A stretch of DNA of 64,000 nucleotides. Origin: Sulfitobacter undariae (GTDB lineage: Bacteria > Pseudomonadota > Alphaproteobacteria > Rhodobacterales > Rhodobacteraceae). The first letter of the stretch is position 1; the number at the start of each line of letters is the position of its first letter. Location: positions 372,001-436,000 of the forward strand of contig NZ_JACIEI010000003.1 of the NCBI RefSeq assembly GCF_014196805.1, given 5' to 3'. This document shows positions 5,475 through 59,695 of this stretch, in pieces. The position numbers and the translations under genes were made by a program. The notes beneath the pieces are model-generated. The model made no database searches. It was not told the DNA's origin and saw only the letters and a list, made by a program, of their open reading frames with translations.

Positions 5475-7772
5475 ATGAAATTCCGTTTCCCGATTGTCAT
5501 TATTGACGAAGACTTCCGCTCGGATAATTCTTCTGGGCTTGGCATCCGTGCCGTGGCCGAAGCGATTGAGAGTGAAGGTTTTGAGGTGCTGGGCGCCACG
5601 ACTTATGGCGATCTGTCACAATTCGCGCAGCAGCAGTCGCGCGCCAGCGCCTTTGTTCTGTCAATCGACGACGAAGAGTTCACGGACGGGGACGAGTTGG
5701 ACCCTGCCGTGGTGAACCTGCGCAATTTCATCGAAGAAGTGCGTTGGAAAAATGCCGATGTGCCGATCTATATATACGGCGAGACAAAAACATCGCGGCA
5801 CTTGCCCAATGACATTCTGCGCGAGCTGCACGGCTTTATCCATATGTTTGAGGACACGCCCGAATTTGTGGCCCGTCATATCATCCGCGATGCCAAGAAG
5901 TACCTTGAGGGCATCCAGCCGCCGTTTTTCAAGGCGTTGCTGGATTACGCAGAAGATGGATCATATTCTTGGCACTGTCCCGGTCACTCTGGCGGGGTGG
6001 CGTTTTTGAAAAGCCCGATTGGCCAGATGTACCACCAGTTTTACGGCGAAAACATGCTGCGCGCCGATGTCTGCAACTCGGTCGAGGAATTGGGCCAATT
6101 GTTGGACCACAACGGTGCCATCGGCGCGTCCGAGCGCAATGCGGCGCGGATTTTCAACGCGGATCACTGTTTCTTTGTGACCAATGGTACAAGTACCAGC
6201 AATAAAATGGTGTGGCATCACACAGTTGCCCCCGGTGATGTGGTTGTGGTGGACCGTAATTGCCATAAATCAATTCTGCACAGCATTATTATGACAGGGG
6301 CCATTCCTGTCTTTATGAAGCCGACGCGCAACCATTACGGTATCATCGGTCCGATTCAAAAATCGGAATTCAGCATCGAAGCAATCCGCGAGAAAATTCG
6401 CGCCAACCCGCTGCTGGCGCATGTGGATGCTGATACCGTCAAACCCCGTATCATTACGTTGACGCAGTCCACTTATGACGGTGTTTTGTATAACACTGAA
6501 ATGATCAAAGACATGCTGGACGGGTATATCGACAACCTGCATTTTGACGAAGCATGGCTGCCCCATGCGGCGTTCCATCCGTTTTATGGCAACTTCCATT
6601 CGATGGGGCGTAAACGGGAACGGCCAAGCCACTCAGTCACTTACGCGACGCAGTCGATCCACAAACTGCTGGCAGGGATCAGTCAGGCCAGTCAGGTTCT
6701 GGTGCAAGATAGCCAAGACACCAAGCTGGACCGCCACCTATTTAACGAAGCCTATCTGATGCATTCCAGTACTAGCCCGCAGTATAGCATCATCGCAAGC
6801 TGCGATGTGGCTGCGGCGATGATGGAGCCTCCGGGCGGGCGGGCGTTGGTTGAGGAAAGCATCCTTGAGTCCCTCGATTTCCGCCGTGCCATGCGCAAAG
6901 TGGATCAAGAATATGGCGATGACTGGTGGTTCCAAGTCTGGGGGCCAGAGGAATTAGGCGAAGACGGTGTCGACGAGCCAAAAAACTGGGTTTTGAAAAA
7001 AACCGATGCCGAAGGTGTACAGCCCGCAGACGGCGAGGAATCGTGGCATGCTTTTGGCGACATGGCACCGGGTTTCAACATGCTGGACCCAATCAAGGCC
7101 ACGCTGATCACGCCCGGTCTTAATCTGGATGGCAAGTTTGAAGAAACGGGTATTCCCGCATCGATCGTGACAAAGTATTTGGCCGAGCACGGTGTTGTTG
7201 TTGAGAAAACTGGGCTTTACAGCTTTTTCATCATGTTCACCATCGGCATCACCAAGGGGCGCTGGAACTCACTTTTGACCGAATTGCAGCAGTTCAAAGA
7301 TGACTATGATAAAAACCAACCGATGTGGCGCTGCATGCCTGAATTCTGTGCCAAACAACCACGGTATGAAAAGATGGGCCTGCGCGATCTGTGCCAGCAT
7401 GTGCATACGCTATATGCTAAATACGACGTCGCGATCCTGTCGACAGAGATGTACCTGAGCGATCACACCCCTGAAATGACCCCAAGCGCTGCGTTCTCTT
7501 GCATTGCGGCGCGCACAACACAGCGGGTGCCGATTGATGATCTGGAAGGGCGGATCACCACCAGCCTTGTCACGCCTTACCCACCAGGTATCCCATTGCT
7601 GATCCCCGGTGAGGTGTTTAATCGTAAGATCGTTGAATATCTCAAGTTTAACCGCGCTTTTGCACGTGAATGCCCAGGGTTTGAGACGGATATTCACGGC
7701 CTTGTTCAAGAAGAAGATGATCTGGGACAGGTGCAGTATTTTGCAGACTGCGTTGCAATTGCGGCCCCGTAA
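5475..7772 (+). CDS. Orn/Lys/Arg decarboxylase, PLP-dependent (AdiA-like)
   Basis: This 765-residue protein has the three-part build of inducible basic amino-acid decarboxylases. It has an N-terminal response-regulator-like wing domain (residues 1-130), a PLP-binding core, and the C-terminal domain. The PLP lysine lies in SIHKLLAGISQAS (about Lys397) and the preceding FDEAW supplies the cofactor-binding Asp. The sequence THSVTYATQSIHKLL most resembles arginine decarboxylase AdiA. Arginine, lysine or ornithine as substrate cannot be separated by eye. An AGGAG site 7 bases before this ATG fixes the start. No antiporter gene lies next to it, so a biosynthetic (polyamine) role is as likely as acid resistance. 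Confidence 0.9.
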   Translation: MKFRFPIVIIDEDFRSDNSSGLGIRAVAEAIESEGFEVLGATTYGDLSQFAQQQSRASAFVLSIDDEEFTDGDELDPAVVNLRNFIEEVRWKNADVPIYIYGETKTSRHLPNDILRELHGFIHMFEDTPEFVARHIIRDAKKYLEGIQPPFFKALLDYAEDGSYSWHCPGHSGGVAFLKSPIGQMYHQFYGENMLRADVCNSVEELGQLLDHNGAIGASERNAARIFNADHCFFVTNGTSTSNKMVWHHTVAPGDVVVVDRNCHKSILHSIIMTGAIPVFMKPTRNHYGIIGPIQKSEFSIEAIREKIRANPLLAHVDADTVKPRIITLTQSTYDGVLYNTEMIKDMLDGYIDNLHFDEAWLPHAAFHPFYGNFHSMGRKRERPSHSVTYATQSIHKLLAGISQASQVLVQDSQDTKLDRHLFNEAYLMHSSTSPQYSIIASCDVAAAMMEPPGGRALVEESILESLDFRRAMRKVDQEYGDDWWFQVWGPEELGEDGVDEPKNWVLKKTDAEGVQPADGEESWHAFGDMAPGFNMLDPIKATLITPGLNLDGKFEETGIPASIVTKYLAEHGVVVEKTGLYSFFIMFTIGITKGRWNSLLTELQQFKDDYDKNQPMWRCMPEFCAKQPRYEKMGLRDLCQHVHTLYAKYDVAILSTEMYLSDHTPEMTPSAAFSCIAARTTQRVPIDDLEGRITTSLVTPYPPGIPLLIPGEVFNRKIVEYLKFNRAFARECPGFETDIHGLVQEEDDLGQVQYFADCVAIAAP

Positions 7773-16021: not shown

Positions 16022-16948
16022 ATGGCTATCACTCAACTCGTTACACATTCAGGCGGCTTTCACGCTGACGAACTTTTGTCATCGGTTGTCCTTACGCGCC
16101 TGTTTCCACAAGCTGAGTTGCTGCGCAGCCGTGACCGGCAGACGATCACGCCCGCGGAAAACAAAATCATCTATGATGTCGGCGGGGCCTTTGATGCCGA
16201 AGCACAGATATTCGATCACCACCAGCGTCCCGGCCCTTTGCGTGAAGATGATCAGCCCTATAGCTCCTTTGGTTTGATTTGGGCGCATTACGGGCGTGAC
16301 TATCTGACTGCGATGGATGTGCCAGCAGGTGACATCGAGGCAATTCACGCCAAGTTTGACGAGAAGTTTGTGTTGCCAATTGATTTGCTGGACAATGGCG
16401 CGATGGAACCTTCGGTTGCTGGCCCGTTGTCCATCCTGACACTACCGTCTTTGTTGGGCAGTTTGAAACCTGTGTTTGACGATGCTTCACCTACCGCGGA
16501 TGATGATGCATTTCTAACGGCCTTGCCGATCGCGCGCAGTTTCGTCGAAGCGCAAATCCGTAATTTTGCCGCCAAAGCGCGCGCGGTTGGGATTGTAGAA
16601 GAAGCCATCGCAAACGCGGGCACGTCTGCGATACTGGAACTGCCAATGGGTATGCCGTACCGCTCGGCGTTGGACAAGGCCGAGGCCGATCACATTTTGT
16701 TTGTGGTTCACCCGCGCGGTGAAGACTGGACACTAGGGGGTATCAAATTGTCTTCGGAGACCTTTGAACAACGTGCCGACCTGCCGCTTGCTTGGGCAGG
16801 TTTGACGGATGCGGATCTGGAAGCCGCCAGCGGCGTTGTAGGGGCCAAATTCTGTCACAACGCGCGCTTTATTGCTGTGGCTAGCACGCGCGAGGCAATT
16901 TTAGAGATGGCCGAGCTGGCTGTGCAAGAGGCCCAAAAAGAGAGCTAG
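16022..16948 (+). CDS. MYG1 family protein (UPF0160)
   Basis: This 308-residue protein matches the MYG1/UPF0160 family throughout. It has the N-terminal THSGGFHADELL motif, DVGGAFDAEAQIFDHHQ (DHH-like metal-binding site, residues 50-66) and a C-terminal CHNARFIAVA segment. Eukaryotic MYG1 is a 3'-5' RNA exonuclease, so a metal-dependent nuclease role is plausible. An AGGAG site 7 bases upstream supports the start. It is convergent with the B12/pseudoazurin operon. Confidence 0.9.
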   Translation: MAITQLVTHSGGFHADELLSSVVLTRLFPQAELLRSRDRQTITPAENKIIYDVGGAFDAEAQIFDHHQRPGPLREDDQPYSSFGLIWAHYGRDYLTAMDVPAGDIEAIHAKFDEKFVLPIDLLDNGAMEPSVAGPLSILTLPSLLGSLKPVFDDASPTADDDAFLTALPIARSFVEAQIRNFAAKARAVGIVEEAIANAGTSAILELPMGMPYRSALDKAEADHILFVVHPRGEDWTLGGIKLSSETFEQRADLPLAWAGLTDADLEAASGVVGAKFCHNARFIAVASTREAILEMAELAVQEAQKES

Positions 16949-16983
16949 GCTGTCATAGCCTAGGCCGCTACATCATTTTTTCT

Positions 16984-17418
16984 TCACTTTAGCGCTGTTT
17001 CAAGAATGGCGCTAAAGCGGTCTTTTGCACGGTTAGGCAAATCATCGGGTAGTGTGTCGCTGGTCGCTGTGTCCACTTCACCCACATCGATGATCATAAC
17101 CATACCCATCGAAAAATGCGGCGAACATTTAATGCCATAGCGCCCCGATACTGTCAGTTCGGTTGTGAAATCTTCGTTGATTTTGCTTTTGAAAGGCACA
17201 GCGCCGTCAGGCAGCATTGTGTCTATTGTCGCAGCGTTATGGCTGGATTGTTCGGGAATAAAGCGGACGCTGTCGCCCTGTGCAATCGCCAGATAAGAGG
17301 GCTCGTATTGCATGGCACCGTTTGCGTTGCGGTTATACATCCTGACCTCATGAATTTCTGCGAAGGCAGGCGCGGCAAGCAGGCAGAAGATAAAAGGCAG
17401 CGCGCATTTGAGCGTCAT
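16984..17418 (-). CDS. Pseudoazurin (type I copper protein)
   Basis: This 144-residue protein has a cleaved signal peptide (ends AFA) and a mature cupredoxin domain closely matching pseudoazurin: YEPSYLAIAQGDSVRFIP, FKSKINEDF, then the copper loop. All four copper ligands are visible: His in SSHNA, Cys and His in KCSPH, and Met in SMGM. It is a periplasmic one-electron carrier, classically the donor to nitrite or nitrous oxide reductase. Oddly, its ATG overlaps the stop of the B12-transporter ATPase gene by 4 bases, making it the fourth gene of a cobalamin-riboswitch operon. No denitrification gene is in the window. Confidence 0.93.
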   Translation of the reverse strand: MTLKCALPFIFCLLAAPAFAEIHEVRMYNRNANGAMQYEPSYLAIAQGDSVRFIPEQSSHNAATIDTMLPDGAVPFKSKINEDFTTELTVSGRYGIKCSPHFSMGMVMIIDVGEVDTATSDTLPDDLPNRAKDRFSAILETALK

Positions 17419-18191
17419 ATGAGTTCGTCCTCGATGCTATGAAAACGCAAGATGGTGCTATTGTCGGTGGGGTCATGCAACGGCGTGGCACGAACGCGGA
17501 ATACACTGGCAAGGCGTTCAGGCGTCAGAACGTCGGCAGGGGCGCCGCAAATGATCAGCCGACCGTTATCCATGACCGCCAAGCGATCACAGGTCATTGC
17601 TTGGTTCAGGTCATGCAGGGCCATGACCACGGTGACATCTAGGGTGCTGACCAGCCGCAAAAGCGAAAGTTGATAGTGAATATCAAGATGGTTTGTCGGT
17701 TCATCCAGCAGCAGCAGTTGGGGGCGTTGTGCCAGTGCACGGGCGATGTGCACCCGCTGGCGCTCTCCGCCAGAAAGCGTATCCCAGCTGTGGTCGATCA
17801 TTTGCGCCATGCCAACGGCATCTAGGACCTCGTTCACAATGGCTTCATCTTGGGGGCCAAAGGGCGATAAGGCCGAAAGCCAAGGCGTGCGACCCAGTTC
17901 AACCACATCACGCACGGTGAGGGCTTCGGATGTTTCGGCCAATTGTTCGACAAAGGCGATGCGTTGCGCCATTTCGCGGCGCGAAAGTGTCTCGGTCGGC
18001 TGTCCGTCAAGGAAAACCTGCCCCCGAGGCCGCCGGAGCAACCCTGCCATCAGACGTAAAAGTGTTGATTTTCCAGATCCGTTTGGCCCGATCAGACCCA
18101 ATGTCTCACCGGGTTGTACATCAAGGGTTATGCCCTCGATGATGGGTTTAGAACTGCGGTTCCATCCGACATCCTGTGTGGTTAGCCTCAT
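17415..18191 (-). CDS. btuD: Vitamin B12 ABC transporter ATPase
   Basis: This 258-residue FecE/BtuD-type ATPase has Walker A GPNGSGKST, signature LSGGERQR, Walker B LLLLDEPTNH and switch histidine MALHDLNQA. It powers uptake through the adjacent FecCD-type permease. The start overlaps the permease stop by 4 bases; an upstream in-frame extension of over 120 codons only reads through the permease gene. The cobalamin riboswitch at the head of the operon points to B12 rather than an iron chelate. Confidence 0.85.
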   Translation of the reverse strand: MRLTTQDVGWNRSSKPIIEGITLDVQPGETLGLIGPNGSGKSTLLRLMAGLLRRPRGQVFLDGQPTETLSRREMAQRIAFVEQLAETSEALTVRDVVELGRTPWLSALSPFGPQDEAIVNEVLDAVGMAQMIDHSWDTLSGGERQRVHIARALAQRPQLLLLDEPTNHLDIHYQLSLLRLVSTLDVTVVMALHDLNQAMTCDRLAVMDNGRLIICGAPADVLTPERLASVFRVRATPLHDPTDNSTILRFHSIEDELI

Positions 18192-19252
18192 GTGCGCTTC
18201 CTGTTGCGGATCAGGATCAAGGCAAAGGCAGGCGCACCGACAAGCGCTGTGACAACGCCAATGGGGACAACTTGACCGGGGATCAGCATGCGCGATGTGA
18301 CATCGGCTGCGATCAAAAACAGGGCACCTGCAAGGGCCGACGCAGGGATCAGGCGTGCATGGCGGGGGCCAACGACAAACCGCATGGCATGGGGGATAAC
18401 CAGCCCGACAAAGCCGATGGAACCGACAAGGCTCACCATGGTGGCGGTCATCAATGTGGTGGCACCAATCAACATGGCTTGTACACGCCGCACGTTGATC
18501 CCGAGTGAGGCTGCAGAGGAACTGCCGAAGGTAAACGCATCCATGGCGCGCATGAACCACATGGCCGTCAGTAACCCGAATACAGCAGCAGGGGCCGCGA
18601 GCCAGACATCAGGCCAGCGGACGCCAGATAGATTGCCCAGAAGCCAAAACATGATCCCGCGTGCTTGTTCTGCATTTGCAGATTTGGCGATAAAAAAGGA
18701 CGTCAGCGCGTTGAAGAGCTGCGAGCCAGCGATGCCCGCCAACACAAGCTGCGCCGAGCCGCCGCCTGCCGCACGCGCCAGCAGCGCGACCAGAACAAAG
18801 GCCAGTGTTGCGCCGACAAATGCGCCAGCCGAAATGCCGATCATGCCGCCACCAATGCCCAGAATGGTCACGGCAACGGCACCAGTAGATGCGCCAGCAG
18901 ATACGCCCAGTAGATAGGGGTCAGCGAGCGCATTGCGCACCAGAGATTGTAAAACAACCCCCGACAACGCAAGCCCCGCGCCACAAGCAGCTGCAACCAA
19001 AGTACGCGGCAGGCGGTAGCTCCAGATAATGCCTGCATCTATTGGATCGACGGGATAACCCGCCCCCCAGAGGTTATTGGCCAGCACCATGCCCACTGTG
19101 CGCGCTGAAATGGGCATTTCGCCAATAATCACACCCGCTATAATTGCCAGTAACAGTACGGCGACCGCAGGCACACCTCTGACGAGCAGGGTGCGCAATA
19201 GCACCCGAGCAGTTTCGCCATTGGCACGCACAGTGGCCGCCGCACTTCTCAT
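18188..19252 (-). CDS. btuC: Vitamin B12 ABC transporter permease (FecCD family)
   Basis: This 354-residue protein has about ten membrane helices and classic FecCD landmarks: YRLPRTLVAAACGAGLALSG (near residue 78), NALADPYLLGVSAGAS and GSIGFVGLVIPHAMR. It forms the channel of a type II ABC importer. Its ATG overlaps the stop of the binding-protein gene by 4 bases. The substrate is inferred from the riboswitch. Confidence 0.88.
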   Translation of the reverse strand: MRSAAATVRANGETARVLLRTLLVRGVPAVAVLLLAIIAGVIIGEMPISARTVGMVLANNLWGAGYPVDPIDAGIIWSYRLPRTLVAAACGAGLALSGVVLQSLVRNALADPYLLGVSAGASTGAVAVTILGIGGGMIGISAGAFVGATLAFVLVALLARAAGGGSAQLVLAGIAGSQLFNALTSFFIAKSANAEQARGIMFWLLGNLSGVRWPDVWLAAPAAVFGLLTAMWFMRAMDAFTFGSSSAASLGINVRRVQAMLIGATTLMTATMVSLVGSIGFVGLVIPHAMRFVVGPRHARLIPASALAGALFLIAADVTSRMLIPGQVVPIGVVTALVGAPAFALILIRNRKRT

Positions 19253-20259
19253 TTCAGGCCAAACGAAGCGAGTGCGTCAGCCAGCGTTTCAAGCGCGCTG
19301 ATGTTGCGGATGGAAGGGTCCATGGAGTGGCCGTCCATGATGACGATGCGGTTATTCTTCACCGCGTCCATCTGGCTGGCTACTGGGTCGGATTTAAGGA
19401 ATTCCAGCTTTTTCTCAATATCATCCGCTTCAAAACGGCGGCGCTCCATCCTTGCGATGACCAGAACTGAAGGGTTTGCACGTGCAATGGTTTCCCAACT
19501 GACTGTGGGCCATTCTTCGTTGCTTTCTACCACGTTACGCAGGCCCAAGGCATTCATCATATAGGCGGGGGCACCGCCCTGACCGGCAACATAGGGATCA
19601 ATGTCCATCTCGGCAGAGGAGAACCAGAAGGCAGCAGAAGCATCCGGTAAATCCAGCCCTTTGGCCTTGGCAATAGCTGCGGCTTCGCGGGTCTTGAGGG
19701 CATCAACCATCTCCTCACCGCGTGCGGGCACATCAAATATCTGGGCCAGTTCTGTCACACCGCGGTAAACGCTATCCATTTTGTAAAGCTGCGTACGGGT
19801 ACCATCGGACCCTGTGGAGTTGTCTTTGCCGACACAATCTGCAGGCAGGGTATAGGTGGGGATGCCCACATCCATGAACTGTTCGCGCGTGGCAACGATG
19901 CCCTGCGCACCCACGTGCCATTCGTATTGCACGGTGACAAGGCCGGGGCGTTTGGCGACTACGGATTCAAAGCTGGGATCGTTATCCGCAAGGCGCTCAA
20001 CAGAAGCGTTTAGCGTTTCAAATTCTGGCAGGACTTTGGTGAACCAGACTGATGTACCGATTACTTGATCACCAAGGTCCAACGCGTACAATACTTCGGT
20101 TGCAGCTTGTCCGATGGTAACCGTGCTTTTGGGGGCATGATCAAAGGTGATATCAACACCGCAGTTCTCCAACGACAGCGGATATGCCGTTTGCGCCTGC
20201 GCGGCGCCTGCAAAAAGGCTGGCGGTGATAAGAGGGGTCGTCAGAAGTTTAAAGAGCAT
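19249..20259 (-). CDS. btuF: Vitamin B12 periplasmic binding protein
   Basis: This 336-residue TroA/BtuF-type substrate-binding protein has a signal peptide (to AQA near residue 22). Binding-protein features include the central helix between lobes and the IVIMDGHSMDPSIRN segment near the C-terminus. A GGAGAC ribosome-binding site precedes the chosen ATG; the longer frame reads into the leader. It is first in the order btuF-btuC-btuD-pseudoazurin. FecB-like proteins bind siderophores or B12; the leader riboswitch favours B12. Confidence 0.82.
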   Translation of the reverse strand: MLFKLLTTPLITASLFAGAAQAQTAYPLSLENCGVDITFDHAPKSTVTIGQAATEVLYALDLGDQVIGTSVWFTKVLPEFETLNASVERLADNDPSFESVVAKRPGLVTVQYEWHVGAQGIVATREQFMDVGIPTYTLPADCVGKDNSTGSDGTRTQLYKMDSVYRGVTELAQIFDVPARGEEMVDALKTREAAAIAKAKGLDLPDASAAFWFSSAEMDIDPYVAGQGGAPAYMMNALGLRNVVESNEEWPTVSWETIARANPSVLVIARMERRRFEADDIEKKLEFLKSDPVASQMDAVKNNRIVIMDGHSMDPSIRNISALETLADALASFGLK

Positions 20260-20425
20260 AGTCCGTCTCCGGAAATTGATGTGACCGGAAACGAGAAGGG
20301 ATTGGAACGCCGTCCACATGCCTGTGCAATTGCGCAGGTGCGGTTGTAAGTCGTGTGTAAACACACTGGTTGGCTAGTTTCATCCGACACCTCCCCAGAC
20401 ACCCCGTCCAGGTCACGTTAAGTTA

Positions 20426-20606
20426 CACTGCGTCGGCAGGTCTCCTGACTGACGGGTCAAAAAGTTCTGCAGCCTTCCCATGAAAAAGTGATCACAGTGG
20501 CATATTCGCAGTTCTCTCGCCGCCTACAGTTGCGGGGGCAGTTTCGTTACGCCGAAGACAATCGACGACAAATTCCCATTTAATTCCTTGTGGAAACCGA
20601 CACCCA
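20426..20606 (-). promoter_or_regulatory. Cobalamin riboswitch
   Basis: On the minus strand the conserved blocks of the adenosylcobalamin aptamer appear in order: GGTTTCC near 20596, AAATGGGAATTTG near 20570, CTGCCCCCGCAACTG near 20530, GCCACTG near 20500, GGGAAGGCTGCAG near 20475, and the hallmark GTCAGGAGACCTGCCG near 20445. It lies about 165 bases upstream of btuF. Binding of B12 would switch the whole four-gene operon off, at termination or at ribosome access; the expression platform was not resolved by eye. Confidence 0.95.
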
Positions 20607-20726
20607 CTTCTCTAAGTAGCCGCGAGTGCCTTTGCAATAGGGAACAGTGCGGACTCTCGGCCCGAAGGCATCCGTCATAAGTCGGGGCTGAGGGATAAAA
20701 GCTGTGGAGGGTTTTTCTAAAATAAG

Positions 20727-20761: not shown

Positions 20762-22825
20762 ATGATAAAAATTTCTATAGATATTGGCGGCACTTTCACA
20801 GATGTCGTCGCGCAAACCGAAGTGGGCCTGACGTCGATCAAAGTATTGACCACACCGGATTCCCCAGACCGCGGCGCGCTTGATGGGGTGGGGCGGCTGC
20901 TGTCTGATCTTGGCAAGTCCTATTCAGATATTTCTGCGGTCATTCATGGCACGACCCTTGCCACAAATGCGCTGATTGAGCGGCGCGGCGCCAAGACTGC
21001 GTTTATCACAACAGAGGGTTTTCGCGATGTGCTGGATATGCGCTATGAAAAGCGGTTTGAGCAGTATGATCTGAACATTGAAATGCCCACCGCCTTGGTG
21101 GCGCGCCCGCTCCGCTTGGGGTTGAAAGAGCGCATACTGGCGGATGGCTCTGTGTTGCACGCGCCGCAAAATGACGAGATAGACGCACTGGCTGCCAAGA
21201 TCAAAAGCGAAAACGTCGAAGCCGTTGCCATCGGGTTTCTACATTCCTACCGCAACCCCGCGCATGAGGTCTATGTGGCAGAGCGTTTGCAGCAGGCTTT
21301 GGGTGCCAATGTTACGATCTGTCAAAGCGCTGATGTCGCCTGTGAAATTCGGGAATATGAGCGGTTTTCTACGGTCTGTGCCAATGCCTACGTTAGGCCG
21401 CTCATGTCCAAATATCTTGGGGCGTTGAAGGATGAGCTCAACAGTTTGGGCTTTGCCGGATCGTTCCTGATGATGCTATCTGGCGGCGGTCTAACCACGC
21501 TGGAACAAGCCATGCGATTCCCGATCCGTTTGGTTGAAAGTGGCCCCGCAGGCGGGGTTGCATTGGCAGCCCATGTTGCACGCGAAGTAGGTTCACGCAA
21601 AACACTGTCGCTTGATATCGGCGGGACTACCGCCAAGATTTGCTTTATTTGTGACGGCAATCCGCAAACCACGCGCCGTTTCGAAGTTGCCCGCGCATGG
21701 CGTGATGTTAAAGGCAGCGGTTTGCCCGTGCGTGTCCCAACGGTTGAGTTGGTTGAAATCGGCGCGGGTGGCGGCTCTATGGCTGGGGTCGATACCCTCG
21801 GGCGTCTCAAAGTTGGCCCGCGCAGCGCGGGGTCTGATCCAGGCCCCGCTGCATATGGCCGAGGCGGTGCAGATGCGACGATTACGGATGCGCATTTGAC
21901 GGTTGGCAACATCGCAGCAGAAGGGTTTGCCGGGGGAATGATCTCGCTTACCCCTGAAAATGCGCCAGCGGCGATTGCACAGCATGTGCAGGGGCCAATG
22001 GGCATCGCTGATGTAGAGACCGCTGCGGCGGGTATCATTGAGCTTTCTGATGAGACAATGGCGAACGCGGCGCGGGTGCATGGGATTGAACTGGGCCATG
22101 ATATCGCGGCGTTTGATCTGCTTGTGTCTGGCGGGGGCGGTGCACTCCATGCGGCGCGGATCGCTGAAAAGCTGGGCATCCGTCGGATCATTGTGCCGCA
22201 GAACGCAGGTGTTGGATCGGCGGTAGGGTTCTTGCGCTCGCCCGTCGCATTTGAAAGTGCAATCTCGGTTATGGCGCTGCTGTATGACGTCGATGCTCAG
22301 GAAATTTCCCAGCGGGTTGTCGATCAACTGGCCTATGTCCAAACCATTGTGCAAGAGGCTGTGCCAGCGGATCGTATCGCCGCAACGGTCAAGGCCGAAC
22401 TGCGGTATCAGGGGCAGGGGCTTGAGCTCGCACTAGACTACCCTGCCGAAGATTTTGTTATGGATGCCGCCGCTTTGGAGGCGGAATTTATAACGCGTTA
22501 TGAGGTGTTGGTGGGTTTCGCTTTGAAAAACATCCCAGTCGAATTGGTCTCGGTTAGTGTGACCGCGCGCGAGATACGCACGTTGGAGAAGCAGCCTTTT
22601 GAGCGTGCAGACGCTGAGGATGTGGCAATGACCCGAGAGGTTTTTGATTTGGCGGCCCACAAACAGATCCCCTATCAGATTTTGAAGCGTGCATCCCTTG
22701 GTCACGTGGTCACGCAGGGGCCTGCCGTTGTGACCGAAGACCAGACGACCACCTTGGTTCGGCCTGGGTGGTCAGTGCACACATCGGATGACGGCCATCT
22801 TATATTGGATCGGAGCCCATCATGA
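20762..22825 (+). CDS. hyuA: Hydantoinase/oxoprolinase subunit A
   Basis: This 687-residue protein covers the ATP-binding half of 5-oxoprolinase / N-methylhydantoinase. The N-terminal phosphate loop DIGGTFTDVV, the central THT-like GTTLATNALIERRG, and a second DIGGTTAKI near residue 284 are all present. These enzymes use ATP to open five-membered cyclic amides such as 5-oxoproline or N-methylhydantoin, working with subunit B. The subunit B gene overlaps by 4 bases. The operon also holds a TRAP importer and a GntR regulator, so a catabolic role for an imported substrate is likely. Confidence 0.92.
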   Translation: MIKISIDIGGTFTDVVAQTEVGLTSIKVLTTPDSPDRGALDGVGRLLSDLGKSYSDISAVIHGTTLATNALIERRGAKTAFITTEGFRDVLDMRYEKRFEQYDLNIEMPTALVARPLRLGLKERILADGSVLHAPQNDEIDALAAKIKSENVEAVAIGFLHSYRNPAHEVYVAERLQQALGANVTICQSADVACEIREYERFSTVCANAYVRPLMSKYLGALKDELNSLGFAGSFLMMLSGGGLTTLEQAMRFPIRLVESGPAGGVALAAHVAREVGSRKTLSLDIGGTTAKICFICDGNPQTTRRFEVARAWRDVKGSGLPVRVPTVELVEIGAGGGSMAGVDTLGRLKVGPRSAGSDPGPAAYGRGGADATITDAHLTVGNIAAEGFAGGMISLTPENAPAAIAQHVQGPMGIADVETAAAGIIELSDETMANAARVHGIELGHDIAAFDLLVSGGGGALHAARIAEKLGIRRIIVPQNAGVGSAVGFLRSPVAFESAISVMALLYDVDAQEISQRVVDQLAYVQTIVQEAVPADRIAATVKAELRYQGQGLELALDYPAEDFVMDAAALEAEFITRYEVLVGFALKNIPVELVSVSVTAREIRTLEKQPFERADAEDVAMTREVFDLAAHKQIPYQILKRASLGHVVTQGPAVVTEDQTTTLVRPGWSVHTSDDGHLILDRSPS

Positions 22826-24456
22826 GCGGCAACTTAGATATTGTAGCGCAAAATGTGCTGTGGAACCGGCTGGTTTCGGTCTGCGAAGAGCAGGCAAATG
22901 CGCTGATGCGCGCCGCCTTTGGCGCAATTGTGCGCGAAGCAGGCGATTTGTCTGCCGGTGTATTTGACGCAAATGGCGATATGTTGGCGCAGGCGGTGAC
23001 TGGCACGCCGGGGCATGTGAACACAATGGCGGCGTCTGTCCGTGCGATGCTGGCGCATATTCCCGCCGAAACCCTGAACCCGGGCGATGTTTTGGTGACA
23101 AATGATCCGTGGCTTGGGGCGGGCCATGTGTTTGATTTTGTTGTTGTGACACCTGCGTTTTTGGACGGTAAGATCGTGGGCTACCTCGCCTCGACCAGTC
23201 ACATCGTTGACATCGGGGGGCGCGGTTGGTCCGCCGAGGCGGCTTCGGTCTATGAGGAGGGCGTGACCTTTCCTGTGATGCATCTGCGCCGTGGAAAAGT
23301 TCTCAACGAAGACCTGCTTGCGATTGTGACAACAAACTCCCGTGTCCCTCATGAGGCGCGTGGCGATATTCTGTCGCTGTTGTCTTGCAATGATACGGGG
23401 GTTGCACGGCTGTTGGATCTGATGGGCGAATATGCCTTGTCGGATTTGATTTCGGTTGCAGCTTTTATTTTTGAGCGCTCGGCCATCGGGACGAAAAAGG
23501 CTTTGGCCCGCGCCCCTCAGGGTGTTTACGAGAACACAATGATGCTGGATGGCTATGACGCCCCGATTGAGCTTCGGGCAAAGATGACCATATCTGACGG
23601 CGCCATTTCAGTTGACCTTTCGGGGTCTTCGCCTGCTGTGGGGCGTGGGATCAACTGCCCGCTGAATTATAGTGCGGCATATGCGTCCTTTGGCATCCGT
23701 GCTTTGCTGACACCTGAAATCCCCAATAACCAAGCGTCGCTTGACGCGATTACAATCACTGCGCCTGCTGGCCTTGTGGTCAGTGCAGAACGCCCAAGCC
23801 CCGTTTCCGCCCGCCATGTTATCGGTCAGGCTTTGCCTGATCTGATGCTGGGGTGTCTTGAACAGGCGCTGCCGGGGGAGGTTCTGGCCGAAAGTGCCGG
23901 AGCATTATGGACGTTGTCGCTTTCGGGGGCAGGCAAAACGCCGTTCACCTCCCTTAACGTTGCGCTTGGCGGTATGGGGGCGCGGCCTGAAACCGATGGC
24001 CTGTCCACAACGGCATTCCCTTCTGGTGTGGGTTCCGTGCCTGTTGAGGCCGCAGAAGTGGCATCGCCCGTTATCTATCACTCCAAAGAATTCATCTGCG
24101 ACAGTGGCGGAGCAGGGCAATACCGGGGTGGTTTGGGGCAACGCATCGAAATCAGTTCACGTATCAACGAAGACATGTTCATGTCTGCCGCCGCGTTTGA
24201 ACGCCTGACATCTGGCCCTGAAGGCCGCCAAAACGGGGGGCGAGGTGCCAATGGCAAGGTCTCTATTAGCGATGGCACACAGGTGACGGACAAGGGCATG
24301 TACAAGATCCCAGCTGGGGAACGCGTGATCCTGCAAACTCCCGGGGGCGGCGGGTATGGCGATCCAGCCACACGTGACGTCAATGCCTTAGAACAGGATG
24401 TCGTCGACGGGTTGGTATCCAAAGATGCCGCTCAAAAAATCTATAAGCCAAAGTAA
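22822..24456 (+). CDS. hyuB: Hydantoinase/oxoprolinase subunit B
   Basis: This 544-residue protein is the partner of subunit A. Family landmarks are the N-terminal CEEQANALMRAAFGAIVREAGD, DPWLGAGHVFDFVV (metal-binding region), NSRVPHEARGDI and the C-terminal GGGYGDPATRD. The ATGA overlap with hyuA indicates coupled translation in equal amounts. The exact substrate (5-oxoproline, hydantoins, or acetone-carboxylase-like chemistry) is not settled by the sequence. Confidence 0.92.
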   Translation: MSGNLDIVAQNVLWNRLVSVCEEQANALMRAAFGAIVREAGDLSAGVFDANGDMLAQAVTGTPGHVNTMAASVRAMLAHIPAETLNPGDVLVTNDPWLGAGHVFDFVVVTPAFLDGKIVGYLASTSHIVDIGGRGWSAEAASVYEEGVTFPVMHLRRGKVLNEDLLAIVTTNSRVPHEARGDILSLLSCNDTGVARLLDLMGEYALSDLISVAAFIFERSAIGTKKALARAPQGVYENTMMLDGYDAPIELRAKMTISDGAISVDLSGSSPAVGRGINCPLNYSAAYASFGIRALLTPEIPNNQASLDAITITAPAGLVVSAERPSPVSARHVIGQALPDLMLGCLEQALPGEVLAESAGALWTLSLSGAGKTPFTSLNVALGGMGARPETDGLSTTAFPSGVGSVPVEAAEVASPVIYHSKEFICDSGGAGQYRGGLGQRIEISSRINEDMFMSAAAFERLTSGPEGRQNGGRGANGKVSISDGTQVTDKGMYKIPAGERVILQTPGGGGYGDPATRDVNALEQDVVDGLVSKDAAQKIYKPK

Positions 24457-24490
24457 CAAGAACAGTTCCACTCAACAGGAGGAAACAACA

Positions 24491-25477
24491 ATGACACTGA
24501 TGACCAAGATTTTTGCAGCAACAACTGCGCTGACCCTGACAGGTACCGCTGCTGTGGCACAAACCAACTGGGACCTGACAACGGCATGGGGCGCCAATAA
24601 CTTTCACGCACAAAGCGCGATCGCATTCGCTGATGCGGTACGCGATGCAACCGATGGGGCGGTTGATATTACCGTACATTTGTCTGGTGAGACGGGCGTT
24701 AAAATTACCGAAAAACTGGCCGCAGTAGAGAATGGCATCGTTCAGATGGCCGATATGTTGCTTTTCCTCCAAGCGGGCGAAGAACCCTTTTTGGGCGTCG
24801 ACACCTTGCCTTACCTGATCCAAGGGCAGGATGAGATGAAGACGTGGCTTGAGGTGGCTGGCCCGACCTATGACGCGATATTCGCGCGCCATAACCAGAA
24901 GGTTCTCTATTATGTGCCGTGGCCATCGCCTGGCGTTTACACCAAAGAACCGGTTGTCAGTGCCGATGACATGAACGGCCTGCGCATCCGCTCGTTTAAC
25001 GCGACTTCATTTACGTTCCTTGAGAAGATGGGCGCGGCGCCTGTTGAACTGCCGTTTGAAGAATTGGCGACGGCTGTGGCTGCTGGAACCGTTGATGGTG
25101 CCGCAACCTCGACCTCAACTGGAGCGAACTCAAAGCTGTATCAGTTTACTGGCAACTTTAATCCGTTGAACTGGTCGATGTCGCCGGATGCTGTGACCGT
25201 AAACCTTGATGCATGGAACGGTTTGACCGATCAAGAACGCGAAACGATCCAAAGCCTCGCCGATGAGATGGAGGCGGATTTTTGGGCGGCTTCTGCGCAA
25301 GAAGATGCGTCTAAGACAGCCGAGTTGGTTGAGAATGGCATGGTGATTTCCACCGCCGATGAAAGCCTGAAGGCGAAAATGGCGCAAGCAGGTAAGGCGA
25401 TGTGGGCAGCATTCTTCCTAGATGTGCCCGAAGCGCAAGCCGTTGTTGAGGCTTATGCCGCGAAAACTGGCAAGTAG
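24491..25477 (+). CDS. TRAP transporter substrate-binding protein (DctP family)
   Basis: This 328-residue periplasmic protein has a signal peptide ending AVAQ (about residue 24). DctP-family landmarks are FADAVRDATDGAVDITVH, GLRIRSFNA (carboxylate-binding arginine region near residue 165) and PVELPFEELATAVAAGTVDGAATS. It delivers the substrate to the DctQ/DctM membrane pair encoded next. A strong AGGAGG site precedes the ATG, in keeping with the high expression such proteins need. The conserved arginine suggests an organic acid ligand such as 5-oxoproline. Confidence 0.93.
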   Translation: MTLMTKIFAATTALTLTGTAAVAQTNWDLTTAWGANNFHAQSAIAFADAVRDATDGAVDITVHLSGETGVKITEKLAAVENGIVQMADMLLFLQAGEEPFLGVDTLPYLIQGQDEMKTWLEVAGPTYDAIFARHNQKVLYYVPWPSPGVYTKEPVVSADDMNGLRIRSFNATSFTFLEKMGAAPVELPFEELATAVAAGTVDGAATSTSTGANSKLYQFTGNFNPLNWSMSPDAVTVNLDAWNGLTDQERETIQSLADEMEADFWAASAQEDASKTAELVENGMVISTADESLKAKMAQAGKAMWAAFFLDVPEAQAVVEAYAAKTGK

Positions 25478-25484
25478 GTAGATG

Positions 25485-25511
25485 CACGGGGGCGGGCAGG
25501 CTCGCCCTCGT
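25485..25511 (+). other. Intercistronic hairpin between dctP and dctQ genes
   Basis: CACGGGGGCG pairs with CGCCCTCGTG (one G-T wobble) around a short loop, just after the binding-protein stop. No T-tract follows. Such hairpins usually protect the upstream mRNA so that the binding protein is made in excess over the membrane subunits. Confidence 0.5.
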
Positions 25512-25525
25512 GTGCTTTGATTGAT

Positions 25526-26047
25526 ATGAACCGTTTACTCACCCTCATTGACCGATTGTCACGATTGGCCGAGCTTGCTGCCGTAACCTTGATATTCGGG
25601 TACTGCATTTTGATGCTGACCGAAGTCGTCGCCCGTGCCCAAGCGCGCAGCTTTTCCTTCACTTGGGAGTATAGCCAATACGCGATGGCTGCGGTCTTTG
25701 CGCTGGCCTCTGGGCCTGCAATCCGAACGGCGGTGCATGTGCGCATCTCCTTGCTCACTGAAAAACTGCCCGCTGGTGTTGCTAGGGGGATGGATGTGGT
25801 GGCCAATCTGGTTGCGCTGATCATCGTGGCGGCGATTGTGAACGCCATGTGGACCAAGGTTTCCGTTTCCTTTGACCGTAATATCCTTGCGACCTCGGTT
25901 TCAAAGACACCGCTTTGGATTCCACAGGCGATTATTTTGTGGGGGTTTGCACAACTTTGGCTTGATCTGCTTGCTCGGTCGATACGTCGCATCGCCAACC
26001 AACAGTTTGAATGGCGCGGCGCAGATAAGGAACAAGCTGATGTTTGA
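25526..26047 (+). CDS. TRAP transporter small permease (DctQ family)
   Basis: This protein of about 173 residues has four membrane helices and the DctQ landmark FTWEYSQYAMAAVFALASGPAIR. It joins DctM in the membrane and is needed for TRAP transport. A TTG three codons upstream (25517) is an alternative start. Its stop overlaps the start of the large permease by 8 bases. Confidence 0.88.
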   Translation: MNRLLTLIDRLSRLAELAAVTLIFGYCILMLTEVVARAQARSFSFTWEYSQYAMAAVFALASGPAIRTAVHVRISLLTEKLPAGVARGMDVVANLVALIIVAAIVNAMWTKVSVSFDRNILATSVSKTPLWIPQAIILWGFAQLWLDLLARSIRRIANQQFEWRGADKEQADV

Positions 26048-27329
26048 GATCGCAATTGTCGCCTGCCTTCTTTTTGTGGTCCTGCTGGCGGGGTCCGTCT
26101 GGATCGGCCTGTCCTTATTTGCGACGGGCTATTTGATGCTATCGATATTTAAACCCAATATACCGATGGATATCTTCAGCAGCGGTGTGATCTGGGGCGC
26201 TATGATCCCCACGCCTTTGTTGTCGTTGCCGCTGTTCATTTTGATGAGTGAAGTATTGGTCAGCGCAGGTTTGGGGCGGTCGCTGTTTTCGGGACTTGCC
26301 CCGTGGGTGGGGCGTTTGCCGGGCGGGTTGCTGCATGTGAATGTTGTTGGATCGACTCTGTTTGCCGCTGTGTCGGGATCGTCGGCTGCGACAACGGCCA
26401 TAGTGGGCAACGTGAGCCTGCCAGAGTTAGAAGCCCGCGGTTATGACCGTCAGTTGGCGATGGGGTCGCTGGCTGGGGCAGGGACGTTGGGGTTTTTGAT
26501 CCCGCCGTCAATCATCATGATCATTTACGGCGTCGTTGCCGAGCAATCTATCTTGGAATTGTTCATCGCAGGGGTGATCCCCGGGCTGACGCTGGCGGCG
26601 TTTTACATGATCTACATTGCTGTGCATCAGACCCTCACCGGAACCCAGCCGCATGTTGAACGCCCGACGCGCCGTGAACTGCTGGGCGGGTTGCGTGATA
26701 TCGGGCCGATTGCAGCCTTGATCGGCACCATAATGGGCGCGCTCTACCTTGGGTTTGCTAGCGTCAGTGAACTGGCGGCCTTAGGGGTTCTGGGGGCCGT
26801 ACTGATCTCTGTCGCGATGGGGCGGTTTAGTGTGGGCGCGTTGATCGCCGCTGGACGGCGGGCTGTGCGTACATCTGCGATGATCGGGCTTATTGTGGTT
26901 GGTGCAGCTCTTTTGAATTCAGCATTTGGGTTCTTGGGAATACCCAAGGCCATTGCGGGACAGATCGCCAGTTTTGGCCTGTCTCCCATGGCGCTTATCG
27001 TTGTCTTGTTGGTGTTCTATGCTGTGTTGGGTATGTTTCTTGATGGGACATCGATCATTGTGATGACCCTTCCGATCACATTGCCATTGATTACGGCGGC
27101 AGGGTTTGACCCGATTTGGTTTGGTATCTTTGTCGTCGTGGCCGTTGAGATCAGCCAGATCACGCCGCCTATCGGGTTTAACCTATTTGTCATCCAGTCC
27201 CAAACTGGGGAAAGCATAGGCACCATCGCGCGGGCGGCTTTGCCTTTCTTTGGTATCTTGCTGGGCTTTGCGATATTACTTGCAGTGTTTCCCGATCTGG
27301 CCCTCTGGCTCCCTAGGACATTGCAATGA
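26040..27329 (+). CDS. TRAP transporter large permease (DctM family)
   Basis: This 429-residue protein has about twelve helices. DctM landmarks are PLLSLPLFILMSEVL, GSSAATTAIVGNVSLPEL, GAGTLGFLIPPSIIMIIYG and EISQITPPIGFNLFVI. It is the sodium-driven transport channel. The start ATG lies inside the end of the dctQ gene; the longer upstream frame lies within dctQ and is not coding. Confidence 0.92.
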   Translation: MFEIAIVACLLFVVLLAGSVWIGLSLFATGYLMLSIFKPNIPMDIFSSGVIWGAMIPTPLLSLPLFILMSEVLVSAGLGRSLFSGLAPWVGRLPGGLLHVNVVGSTLFAAVSGSSAATTAIVGNVSLPELEARGYDRQLAMGSLAGAGTLGFLIPPSIIMIIYGVVAEQSILELFIAGVIPGLTLAAFYMIYIAVHQTLTGTQPHVERPTRRELLGGLRDIGPIAALIGTIMGALYLGFASVSELAALGVLGAVLISVAMGRFSVGALIAAGRRAVRTSAMIGLIVVGAALLNSAFGFLGIPKAIAGQIASFGLSPMALIVVLLVFYAVLGMFLDGTSIIVMTLPITLPLITAAGFDPIWFGIFVVVAVEISQITPPIGFNLFVIQSQTGESIGTIARAALPFFGILLGFAILLAVFPDLALWLPRTLQ

Positions 27330-59084: not shown

Positions 59085-59413
59085 AATCTGGAGAAGGGGG
59101 TAAAGTGCAGGTTTCTGTTGCCAGGTACCTGCGAACCCCGCCTTAGGTCGCTAAACGTAAGGACTTAAGTTTCAATAGTTCCGGTCGCTTACGCGGCCAT
59201 CGCCATTGGAGCACGATTGTCATTTGCAATTGTACAGTTTTCGCCGATAACGGTGGCAGACAGCCGAGATAAAGCATAACCCCTTTAGACGTTCGTCGAT
59301 CCTGTTTCGACCCCATGATCCGCAAATGACGGATGATTGGTGGAGTCGCCGGGTACCGCCCCCGGGTCCGAACCGCTTATTACGAGCGCGTTTATATCCA
59401 TAGTCCCGAAGGA
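59085..59413 (-). ncRNA. ssrA: Transfer-messenger RNA, permuted two-piece type
   Basis: Reading the minus strand, the acceptor piece comes first and ends CTCCACCA at 59338, after the T-arm region GCGGTTCGGACC. A 23-base spacer follows, then the coding piece starts GGGGTCG at 59314. The two ends pair as a 7-bp acceptor stem with the G3-U70 wobble that alanyl-tRNA synthetase reads. The tag frame at 59227-59189 reads ANDNRAPMAMAA and a TAA stop. This circularly permuted order is the alphaproteobacterial form, later cut into two RNAs. The outer ends of the feature are approximate. Confidence 0.95.
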
Positions 59414-59420
59414 CAACTCA

Positions 59421-59449
59421 TATATAGGGGCAGGTGGCCGCCGTTGCAA
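59421..59449 (-). promoter_or_regulatory. Promoter of ssrA
   Basis: On the minus strand TTGCAA (-35) and TATATA (-10) are 17 bp apart. The transcript would start near 59414, just before a GTCC-TTCG-GGAC hairpin at the 5' end of the acceptor piece. The remainder of the gap up to 59695 holds no gene. Confidence 0.75.
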
Positions 59450-59695
59450 ATGCTGATGTGTAAAAAAGTTACATGTGGGCGATTAGGGGGCGAATCTATT
59501 CACAATATACGCGTCTTGAACGCAGGCACCGCCGCGCGATACATGCTTTTTTGCGGCGGAATGGGTCGGAAACATTCGCAGAGGTATGGAATACCGTAGT
59601 TTTTCTCTAGCTTAAGAAGTTAACCTTTGACTTGCTTTGCGTAACAGGGTGACTTCGTTGCGTAATAGTAAATCTACTCTGGGGAATTGTTAACT

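What the first reader, a model, noticed from the sequence alone, without database searches (positions are those of the whole stretch)
16984..20606. A pseudoazurin gene is locked into a cobalamin-riboswitch operon
The order riboswitch-btuF-btuC-btuD-pseudoazurin is joined by 4-base ATGA overlaps at all three junctions, so the copper protein should be made only when B12 is scarce. Pseudoazurin is known as an electron carrier for denitrification enzymes, none of which is here. A periplasmic electron carrier co-made with a B12 importer suggests a link between electron supply and corrinoid uptake or reduction, or a switch between B12-dependent and copper-dependent metabolism. The overlaps and copper ligands are seen; the functional link is inference.
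Basis: partly seen in the sequence, partly recalled or inferred. Interest (0 to 1): 0.72.

Follow-up and report, generated by a model that had tools for sequence, protein, structure and literature searches.

The report
Copper protein in B12-import operon
A small copper-carrying electron-transfer protein sits, in many bacteria, at the end of the same vitamin-B12-controlled import operon and forms its own branch of the family, so it is probably a dedicated helper of B12 uptake and not a stray denitrification part.

Summary
On the minus strand a cobalamin riboswitch (RF00174, 102.7 bits) precedes btuF-, btuC- and btuD-like genes and a true pseudoazurin, with ATGA overlaps at all three junctions. 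It is not confined to this genome: among the 80 best relatives found in one-per-species genomes, 74 lie behind all three transporter genes and 3 more behind btuD; the riboswitch is in 73 of those 74. The operon occurs in Alpha- and Betaproteobacteria, on chromosomes and plasmids. These pseudoazurins form one clade (100/99), apart from the nirK/nosZ-associated type, and keep the copper ligands. A denitrification role is unlikely: 28 of 53 genomes tested, this one included, lack nirK, nirS and nosZ. The dependence is one-sided: the transporter often occurs without the pseudoazurin, but all 81 clade members lie beside the transporter or in a genome that has it. Best explanation: a dedicated periplasmic redox accessory of corrinoid import, made when B12 is low. 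Which electron transfer it performs is not shown. The substrate is inferred from the riboswitch; the subunits fail the strict BtuC/BtuD models. Paper searches found no mention of this pairing.

The parts
20418..20616 (-). Cobalamin riboswitch aptamer (RF00174)
   Evidence: cmscan 102.7 bits, full length model 1-189
20264..20293 (-). Predicted 9-bp hairpin whose 3' arm holds the Shine-Dalgarno of btuF; candidate expression platform
   Evidence: RNA fold of the leader (the leader as a whole folds no better than shuffles, z -0.44); in relatives Shine-Dalgarno pairing is only slightly above a shuffle control, so suggestive only
19249..20259 (-). btuF-like substrate-binding protein (class III, PF01497)
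   Evidence: AlphaFold model pLDDT 90.8 with Foldseek hits to heme, siderophore and B12 binding proteins
18188..19252 (-). btuC-like permease (PF01032 FecCD)
   Evidence: 4-base overlap with btuF
17415..18191 (-). btuD-like ATPase (PF00005)
   Evidence: 4-base overlap with btuC
16984..17418 (-). Pseudoazurin with an N-terminal signal-like sequence (by eye) and type 1 copper ligands H60, C98, H101, M106
   Evidence: 4-base overlap with btuD
16945..16963 (-). Terminator-like hairpin closing the operon
   Evidence: pattern match, not above the chance count

Best explanation
This is a cobalamin-riboswitch operon for a corrinoid ABC importer that carries a dedicated pseudoazurin as its last gene. 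When intracellular B12 is low the riboswitch lets the operon be read; tight junctions couple the four genes. The pseudoazurin is exported, loads copper and works in the periplasm as a one-electron partner of corrinoid acquisition. It most likely changes or guards the cobalt oxidation state of captured corrinoid, for example taking an electron from cob(II)alamin so that the binding protein receives a Co(III) form. Shown: anatomy, conservation, common inheritance, copper ligands, one-sided dependence on the transporter, independence from denitrification genes. Inferred: the transporter's substrate, periplasmic location, the coupling, and the electron-transfer step and its direction.
For: Behind btuD in 77 and behind all of btuF-btuC-btuD in 74 of the 80 best relatives. 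The 3 others: L101 starts some 90 bases before its pseudoazurin match, and the transporter locus of its genome is cut short 117 bases behind the btuD match, so an assembly break is likely; L080 (Shimia) has the transporter elsewhere; L082 belongs to the other pseudoazurin type. Riboswitch in 73 of the 75 linked loci with upstream DNA: 70 by pattern and 3 by Rfam; none in L045 and in L077, whose btuF and part of btuC are missing. Linked pseudoazurins form one clade of 81 rows, 100/99. Copper ligands in 79, 79, 78 and 79 of 79. Pseudoazurin distances track btuC, btuF and btuD (Mantel r 0.82, 0.82, 0.81; largest of 500 permutations 0.15; 74 rows). Flanking genes differ between loci while the unit stays whole, also on plasmids of R. 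capsulatus, C. sphaeroides and Diaphorobacter. cob-type genes lie nearby in 6-7 loci (named by eye) and, by annotation, in C. sphaeroides.
Against: No expression, uptake or redox data. The scan was seeded with linked proteins and kept the 80 best of 289 relatives, so the 77 of 80 describes this clade, not pseudoazurins at large. The pseudoazurin is not needed for the transporter: in samples drawn by the permease it is present in 3 of 6 readable same-type operons of the family, own included, and 0 of 6 of the class. Comparing binding proteins with and without a neighbouring pseudoazurin shows only three modest residue differences, no obvious docking site. Substrate unproven: BtuC/BtuD equivalog cut-offs not met. 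Redox potentials behind the cob(II) idea are recalled, from no call.
Confidence: 0.45

Rival explanations
1. General electron carrier: B12 shortage is only the signal, and the pseudoazurin feeds or drains ordinary periplasmic redox enzymes (oxidases, peroxidases) when B12-dependent metabolism stalls.
For: Retains the copper ligands and mostly basic residues at positions 30, 77, 79 and 97. Sole pseudoazurin in 29 of 53 genomes, counted by hand (G026 counted although its only match is 1.5 bits under cut-off) and tabulated.
Against: A general carrier should not depend on one transporter: all 81 clade members are beside it or in a genome that has it. Lysines average 4.9, against 7.6 in 18 other unlinked rows and 11.5 in 21 high-scoring ones, so the docking surface has changed.
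Confidence: 0.2
2. N2O or denitrification link: N2O inactivates B12, which relieves the riboswitch, and the pseudoazurin then feeds N2O or nitrite reductase.
For: N2O acting on genes under B12 riboswitches in Paracoccus is reported (passages read in PMC12848317 and PMC5987163, citing Sullivan 2013, which was not held). Pseudoazurin is described as donor to nitrite, NO and N2O reductases. In G088 (L063) the linked copy lies about 7 kb from nirK.
Against: NosZ over cut-off in 15 of 53 genomes, NirK in 13, NirS in 7; 28 of 53 have none, this genome included. Genomes with a second pseudoazurin have these genes more often (16 of 24 against 9 of 29, Fisher p 0.014), so the second gene looks like the denitrification carrier. 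Completeness of 50 of the 53 genomes was not told.
Confidence: 0.07
3. Metal-chelate uptake: the transporter carries a cobalt or other metal complex, not a finished corrinoid, and the copper protein assists metal oxidation or release; the methyltransferase would act on the ligand.
For: The binding protein scores nearer the siderophore model EitA and the F420-0 model than any B12 protein model. Foldseek ranks heme and siderophore binders with, and above, a BtuF. A methyltransferase is often next. In Diaphorobacter the operon lies among siderophore receptor genes.
Against: The cobalamin riboswitch is kept in nearly every copy, Diaphorobacter included, though B12 riboswitches are also known before cobalt transporters (recalled).
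Confidence: 0.18
4. Passenger: the gene was captured once by a mobile operon and is kept without a function tied to uptake.
For: Single origin; plasmid-borne copies; absent from many related operons.
Against: The copper site is kept over long divergence, and linkage survives changes of flanks, replicon and class, which needs selection.
Confidence: 0.1

Closest known systems
Pseudoazurin (TIGR02375), e.g. PDB 1bqk
   Same: Passes the family cut-off, aligns over residues 24-139, same copper ligands
   Different: Separate clade, riboswitch operon, Met108 (see full report for the bias), fewer lysines, no NirK, NirS or NosZ over cut-off in this genome
BtuFCD vitamin B12 importer under a cobalamin riboswitch
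   Same: PF01497, PF01032 and PF00005 subunits in the order F-C-D behind RF00174
   Different: Below the BtuC and BtuD equivalog cut-offs; nearest NCBIfam models are EitA and EitC and the F420-0 transporter; carries a pseudoazurin and in some genomes a methyltransferase
Pyoverdine-iron release machinery FpvGHJK with FpvCDEF (recalled)
   Same: Periplasmic redox step tied to an ABC importer (recalled)
   Different: Uses a reductase to release iron; a blue copper protein is too oxidising for that role (recalled); no homologous parts looked for

Membership tests
Pseudoazurin (TIGR02375) | Score over curated cut-off 109.85 | tested here: met
   117.2 bits
Pseudoazurin (TIGR02375) | Type 1 copper ligands His, Cys, His, Met | tested here: met
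   H60, C98, H101, M106; in the linked rows 79, 79, 78, 79 of 79
Pseudoazurin (TIGR02375) | Electron donor to nitrite or N2O reductase (classical function, not part of the sequence definition) | tested here: inconclusive
   Only the presence of partners could be tested: this genome has no NirK, NirS or NosZ over cut-off. Family membership stands; the classical function is doubtful
Cobalamin riboswitch (RF00174) | Covariance model score over 31.5 | tested here: met
   102.7 bits, whole model
Cobalamin riboswitch (RF00174) | Binds cobalamin and represses the operon | not testable with these tools
   Needs in-line probing or a reporter; a Shine-Dalgarno hairpin is predicted but weakly supported across relatives
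BtuFCD importer | Class III binding protein, FecCD permease and ABC ATPase in one operon | tested here: met
   PF01497, PF01032, PF00005
BtuFCD importer | NCBIfam BtuC and BtuD equivalog cut-offs | tested here: not met
   BtuC 206.3 of 334 and 220 of 461; BtuD 145.6 of 281
BtuFCD importer | Binds and moves cobalamin | not testable with these tools
   Inferred from the riboswitch and nearby cob genes
EitABC siderophore transporter | EitA cut-off 640, EitC cut-off 485 | tested here: not met
   296.6 and 292.9 bits
Putative F420-0 transporter (TIGR03868, 03869, 03873) | Cut-offs 392.4, 437.35, 372.4 | tested here: not met
   180.6, 278.3, 295.8 bits

The most novel reading that the evidence does not exclude
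A type 1 copper protein is a working part of corrinoid uptake: it sets the oxidation state of cobalt in the periplasm, most plausibly by oxidising cob(II) corrinoids, before or while the binding protein hands them to the importer. This would be a redox step not described for B12 transport in the literature searched here, controlled by the same riboswitch as the importer.
Probability: 0.3. Interest if true: 0.82.

Novelty: new variant of a known kind. Interest (0 to 1): 0.62.

Why it matters
B12 uptake is usually drawn as binding and ATP-driven transport without redox chemistry outside the cytoplasm (recalled). A conserved copper electron carrier inside a B12-controlled import operon points to a missing periplasmic step, or to a corrinoid or metal form that needs oxidation or reduction before import. 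It also splits off a B12-operon type from the pseudoazurins found near nirK and nosZ, so a pseudoazurin gene alone should not be read as a sign of denitrification. Rhodobacter capsulatus SB 1003, a laboratory strain (recalled), carries the operon with its riboswitch on pRCB133 (RCAP_RS17710 to RS17690), so the idea can be tested at once.

Tried and rejected
Rejected: 'found in this genome only'. Rejected as the main role: denitrification or N2O respiration. Rejected: shared neighbourhood as the reason for linkage; no flanking gene other than a methyltransferase and, in 6-7 loci, cob-type genes recurs widely (the gene caller was crude, clusters in fewer than 6 loci were not listed, and groups of antisense frames were ignored). 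Considered: fusion of btuD and pseudoazurin as proof of contact; one open frame without a stop was seen in L077 only, where btuF and part of btuC are missing, while L032, L034 and L086 proved to have a stop; not used. Tried: a Shine-Dalgarno-sequestering hairpin as a conserved feature; paired fraction 0.81 against 0.77 in shuffles, p 0.044, 58 loci with a usable start; perfect 6-base anti-Shine-Dalgarno in 13 of 58 against 5.1 expected: too weak to claim. A first, uncontrolled count (58 of 76) is not used. Tried: Foldseek on the binding protein to find its substrate; hits are mixed. Tried: PADLOC on the pseudoazurin, no match.
Full report
What is there. The window holds, on the minus strand, a full-length cobalamin riboswitch (20616-20418), a class III binding protein, a FecCD permease, an ABC ATPase and a pseudoazurin. 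The stop of each gene overlaps the start of the next by ATGA. The pseudoazurin passes the curated family model and aligns to solved pseudoazurins over residues 24-139. On that strand no promoter-like site lies between riboswitch and pseudoazurin, and a terminator-like hairpin follows the gene, but both pattern counts are at chance level.

Is it more than this genome? In 61 genomes of the family, 17 have a pseudoazurin match and 3, own included, have it behind btuC and btuD. A profile of these three proteins was used to scan a collection of one genome for each of 84,980 species: 289 relatives, of which the best 80 were fetched. In 77 of the 80 btuD lies directly upstream on the same strand; 74 have matches to btuF, btuC and btuD in order, L043 and L065 are cut by contig ends, and L077 has only part of btuC and no btuF although 5.6 kb of DNA precede it. 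Two limits: the seeds were linked proteins and one search pattern contained MGMVM, so the count describes this clade, and 209 weaker relatives were not seen. Hosts are Rhodobacterales, Hyphomicrobiales (Agrobacterium, Rhizobium, Ensifer, Bartonella tamiae), Acetobacteraceae, Novispirillum and the betaproteobacteria Lautropia and, on a plasmid, Diaphorobacter. The three unlinked loci are explained by a contig start (L101: the transporter locus of its genome is cut short 117 bases behind the btuD match), relocation (L080, Shimia: transporter elsewhere and without a riboswitch in the 8 kb read) and the other pseudoazurin type (L082; no matching permease in its genome).

Riboswitch. Of the 77, L043 and L065 lack upstream DNA. 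Of the other 75, 70 show the conserved B12 box by pattern and three more (L052, L063, L100, with tandem btuF genes) by Rfam; L045 and L077 have none. So it is present in 73 of 75, and in 73 of the 74 complete operons. Rfam was run on 10 loci (riboswitch before btuF in 8; none in L045 and the unlinked L080) and on 10 (in 9; none in L077); all 14 pattern-positive loci among these were confirmed. In one search, three of four annotated plasmid stretches hold it before btuF; the fourth, L195, starts inside btuF.

One clade, own features. A 118-row tree puts 79 linked pseudoazurins plus L080 and L101 in one clade, 100/99; 3 label changes against a mean of 32.8 in shuffles (few columns, 33 of 115 inner branches open). 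The copper ligands are kept in 79, 79, 78 and 79 of 79 rows. Met108 is in 79 of 79; outside it is Ala or Gly in 32 of 39 and Met in 7, two of these being L080 and L101 and five the nearest relatives of the clade; because a search pattern held this Met, its invariance is partly ascertained. Lysines average 4.9, against 11.5 in 21 high-scoring rows and 7.6 in 18 other rows; net charge hardly differs (-5.2, -3.6, -5.4). Distances track those of the transporter proteins (73 loci plus the window, 78 linked rows before incomplete ones were dropped).

Not denitrification. In 53 genomes with the linked gene, NosZ is over cut-off in 15, NirK in 13 and NirS in 7; 28 have none of the three, the window's genome among them (union). 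The genomes were hand-picked for spread, and the completeness of 50 of them is not told. A second pseudoazurin over cut-off occurs in 24 of the 53 (counted by hand); in 12 of these 24 one lies within about 12 kb of nirK or nosZ by coordinates. In one genome, G088, the linked copy itself also lies about 7 kb from a nirK. Genomes with a second pseudoazurin carry denitrification genes more often (16 of 24 against 9 of 29, p 0.014). The P. denitrificans pseudoazurin Pden_4222 is described as clustered with the N2O reductase genes (passages of PMC9409073).

One-sided dependence. Sampling by the permease instead: of 149 family genomes, 9 match at 1e-80; 7 are of the same type (identity 61% or more), one of them is unreadable (N), and 3 of the other 6, own included, have the pseudoazurin. 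G026, which has it, is not among the 9; its btuC frame is broken. Of 385 class genomes, 8 match at 1e-100: the window, 6 of this type (59-67%) and one of a second type (54%); 0 of the 6 have a pseudoazurin in the 736 or more bases behind the btuD match. Of 10 operons of this type without a neighbouring pseudoazurin (L145-L147, L187-L192 and Shimia, L194), Rfam finds the riboswitch in 8; L147 (G136) and Shimia lack it in the stretch read. So the transporter does not need the copper protein, but this copper protein goes with the transporter.

Mechanism. The simplest reading is a dedicated periplasmic redox accessory of corrinoid uptake. Pseudoazurin potentials lie near +0.27 V and aquacob(III)alamin/cob(II)alamin near +0.2 V (both recalled, not from a call); if so, oxidation of cob(II) is feasible and reduction of cyano- or alkylcobalamins is not. 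That is an argument of plausibility, not a result. The leader of the window folds into a 9-bp hairpin over the btuF ribosome site, which would make control translational and the overlaps meaningful, but relatives support it only weakly. The methyltransferase that follows the pseudoazurin in many operons, and sits behind btuD in some without it, is a second unexplained accessory.

What remains open. Substrate: the binding protein is closer to EitA and F420-0 models than to any B12 model, its model matches heme, siderophore and B12 binders alike. A metal-chelate substrate is therefore a live rival. Literature: searches of the held full-text library for pseudoazurin with cobalamin, riboswitch, vitamin B12, btuF and corrinoid, and for blue copper or cupredoxin with cobalamin riboswitch terms, listed eight different papers; I read the matching passages of all eight (for two of them one of the terms only) and none describes this pairing. 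From one PduS paper I also read passages. The library lacks most subscription papers, among them the comparative B12 regulon studies that I recall, so an earlier mention cannot be excluded.

Noticed in passing
L027, L028, L036, L039, L050, L066, L079, L094, L096, L104 and others behind the pseudoazurin; L191 behind btuD without one: A class I SAM methyltransferase (PF08241) is a second recurring accessory of this operon, annotated as such in R. capsulatus (RCAP_RS17690).
   Followed up: partly
L052, L063, L100 (and a 50%-identical second copy in L036): Two btuF-like genes in tandem before btuC.
   Followed up: no
L077 near 5619-7369: In Pseudorhodobacter aquimaris btuD and pseudoazurin share one open frame without a stop, btuC is partial, btuF and riboswitch are missing; decay or a misassembly.
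   Followed up: partly
L083: A record titled Mesoflavibacter (Bacteroidota) MAG carries the operon and nests in the proteobacterial clade; a mis-binned or mislabelled genome is likely.
   Followed up: no
G000 contigs C2, C4, C20 (L124, L129, L134): Three further cobalamin riboswitches in this genome, before a DUF1636-like/cobW-like pair, a cobalt-transporter-like permease, and an IS transposase (names by eye from the translations).
   Followed up: partly
A3, residues C33 and C142 of the btuF-like protein: Two cysteines are invariant in all 22 aligned binding proteins and in all 84, with or without a neighbouring pseudoazurin; possible disulfide.
   Followed up: no
L197, Diaphorobacter plasmid: The operon with its cobalamin riboswitch lies among siderophore receptor genes, and an OprD-type porin follows the pseudoazurin.
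   Followed up: partly
window 59104-59453: Alphaproteobacterial (permuted) tmRNA.
   Followed up: no
window 20762-27329: Divergent from the operon: a hydantoinase-like pair and TRAP-transporter-like genes (named by eye), no evident B12 link.
   Followed up: no
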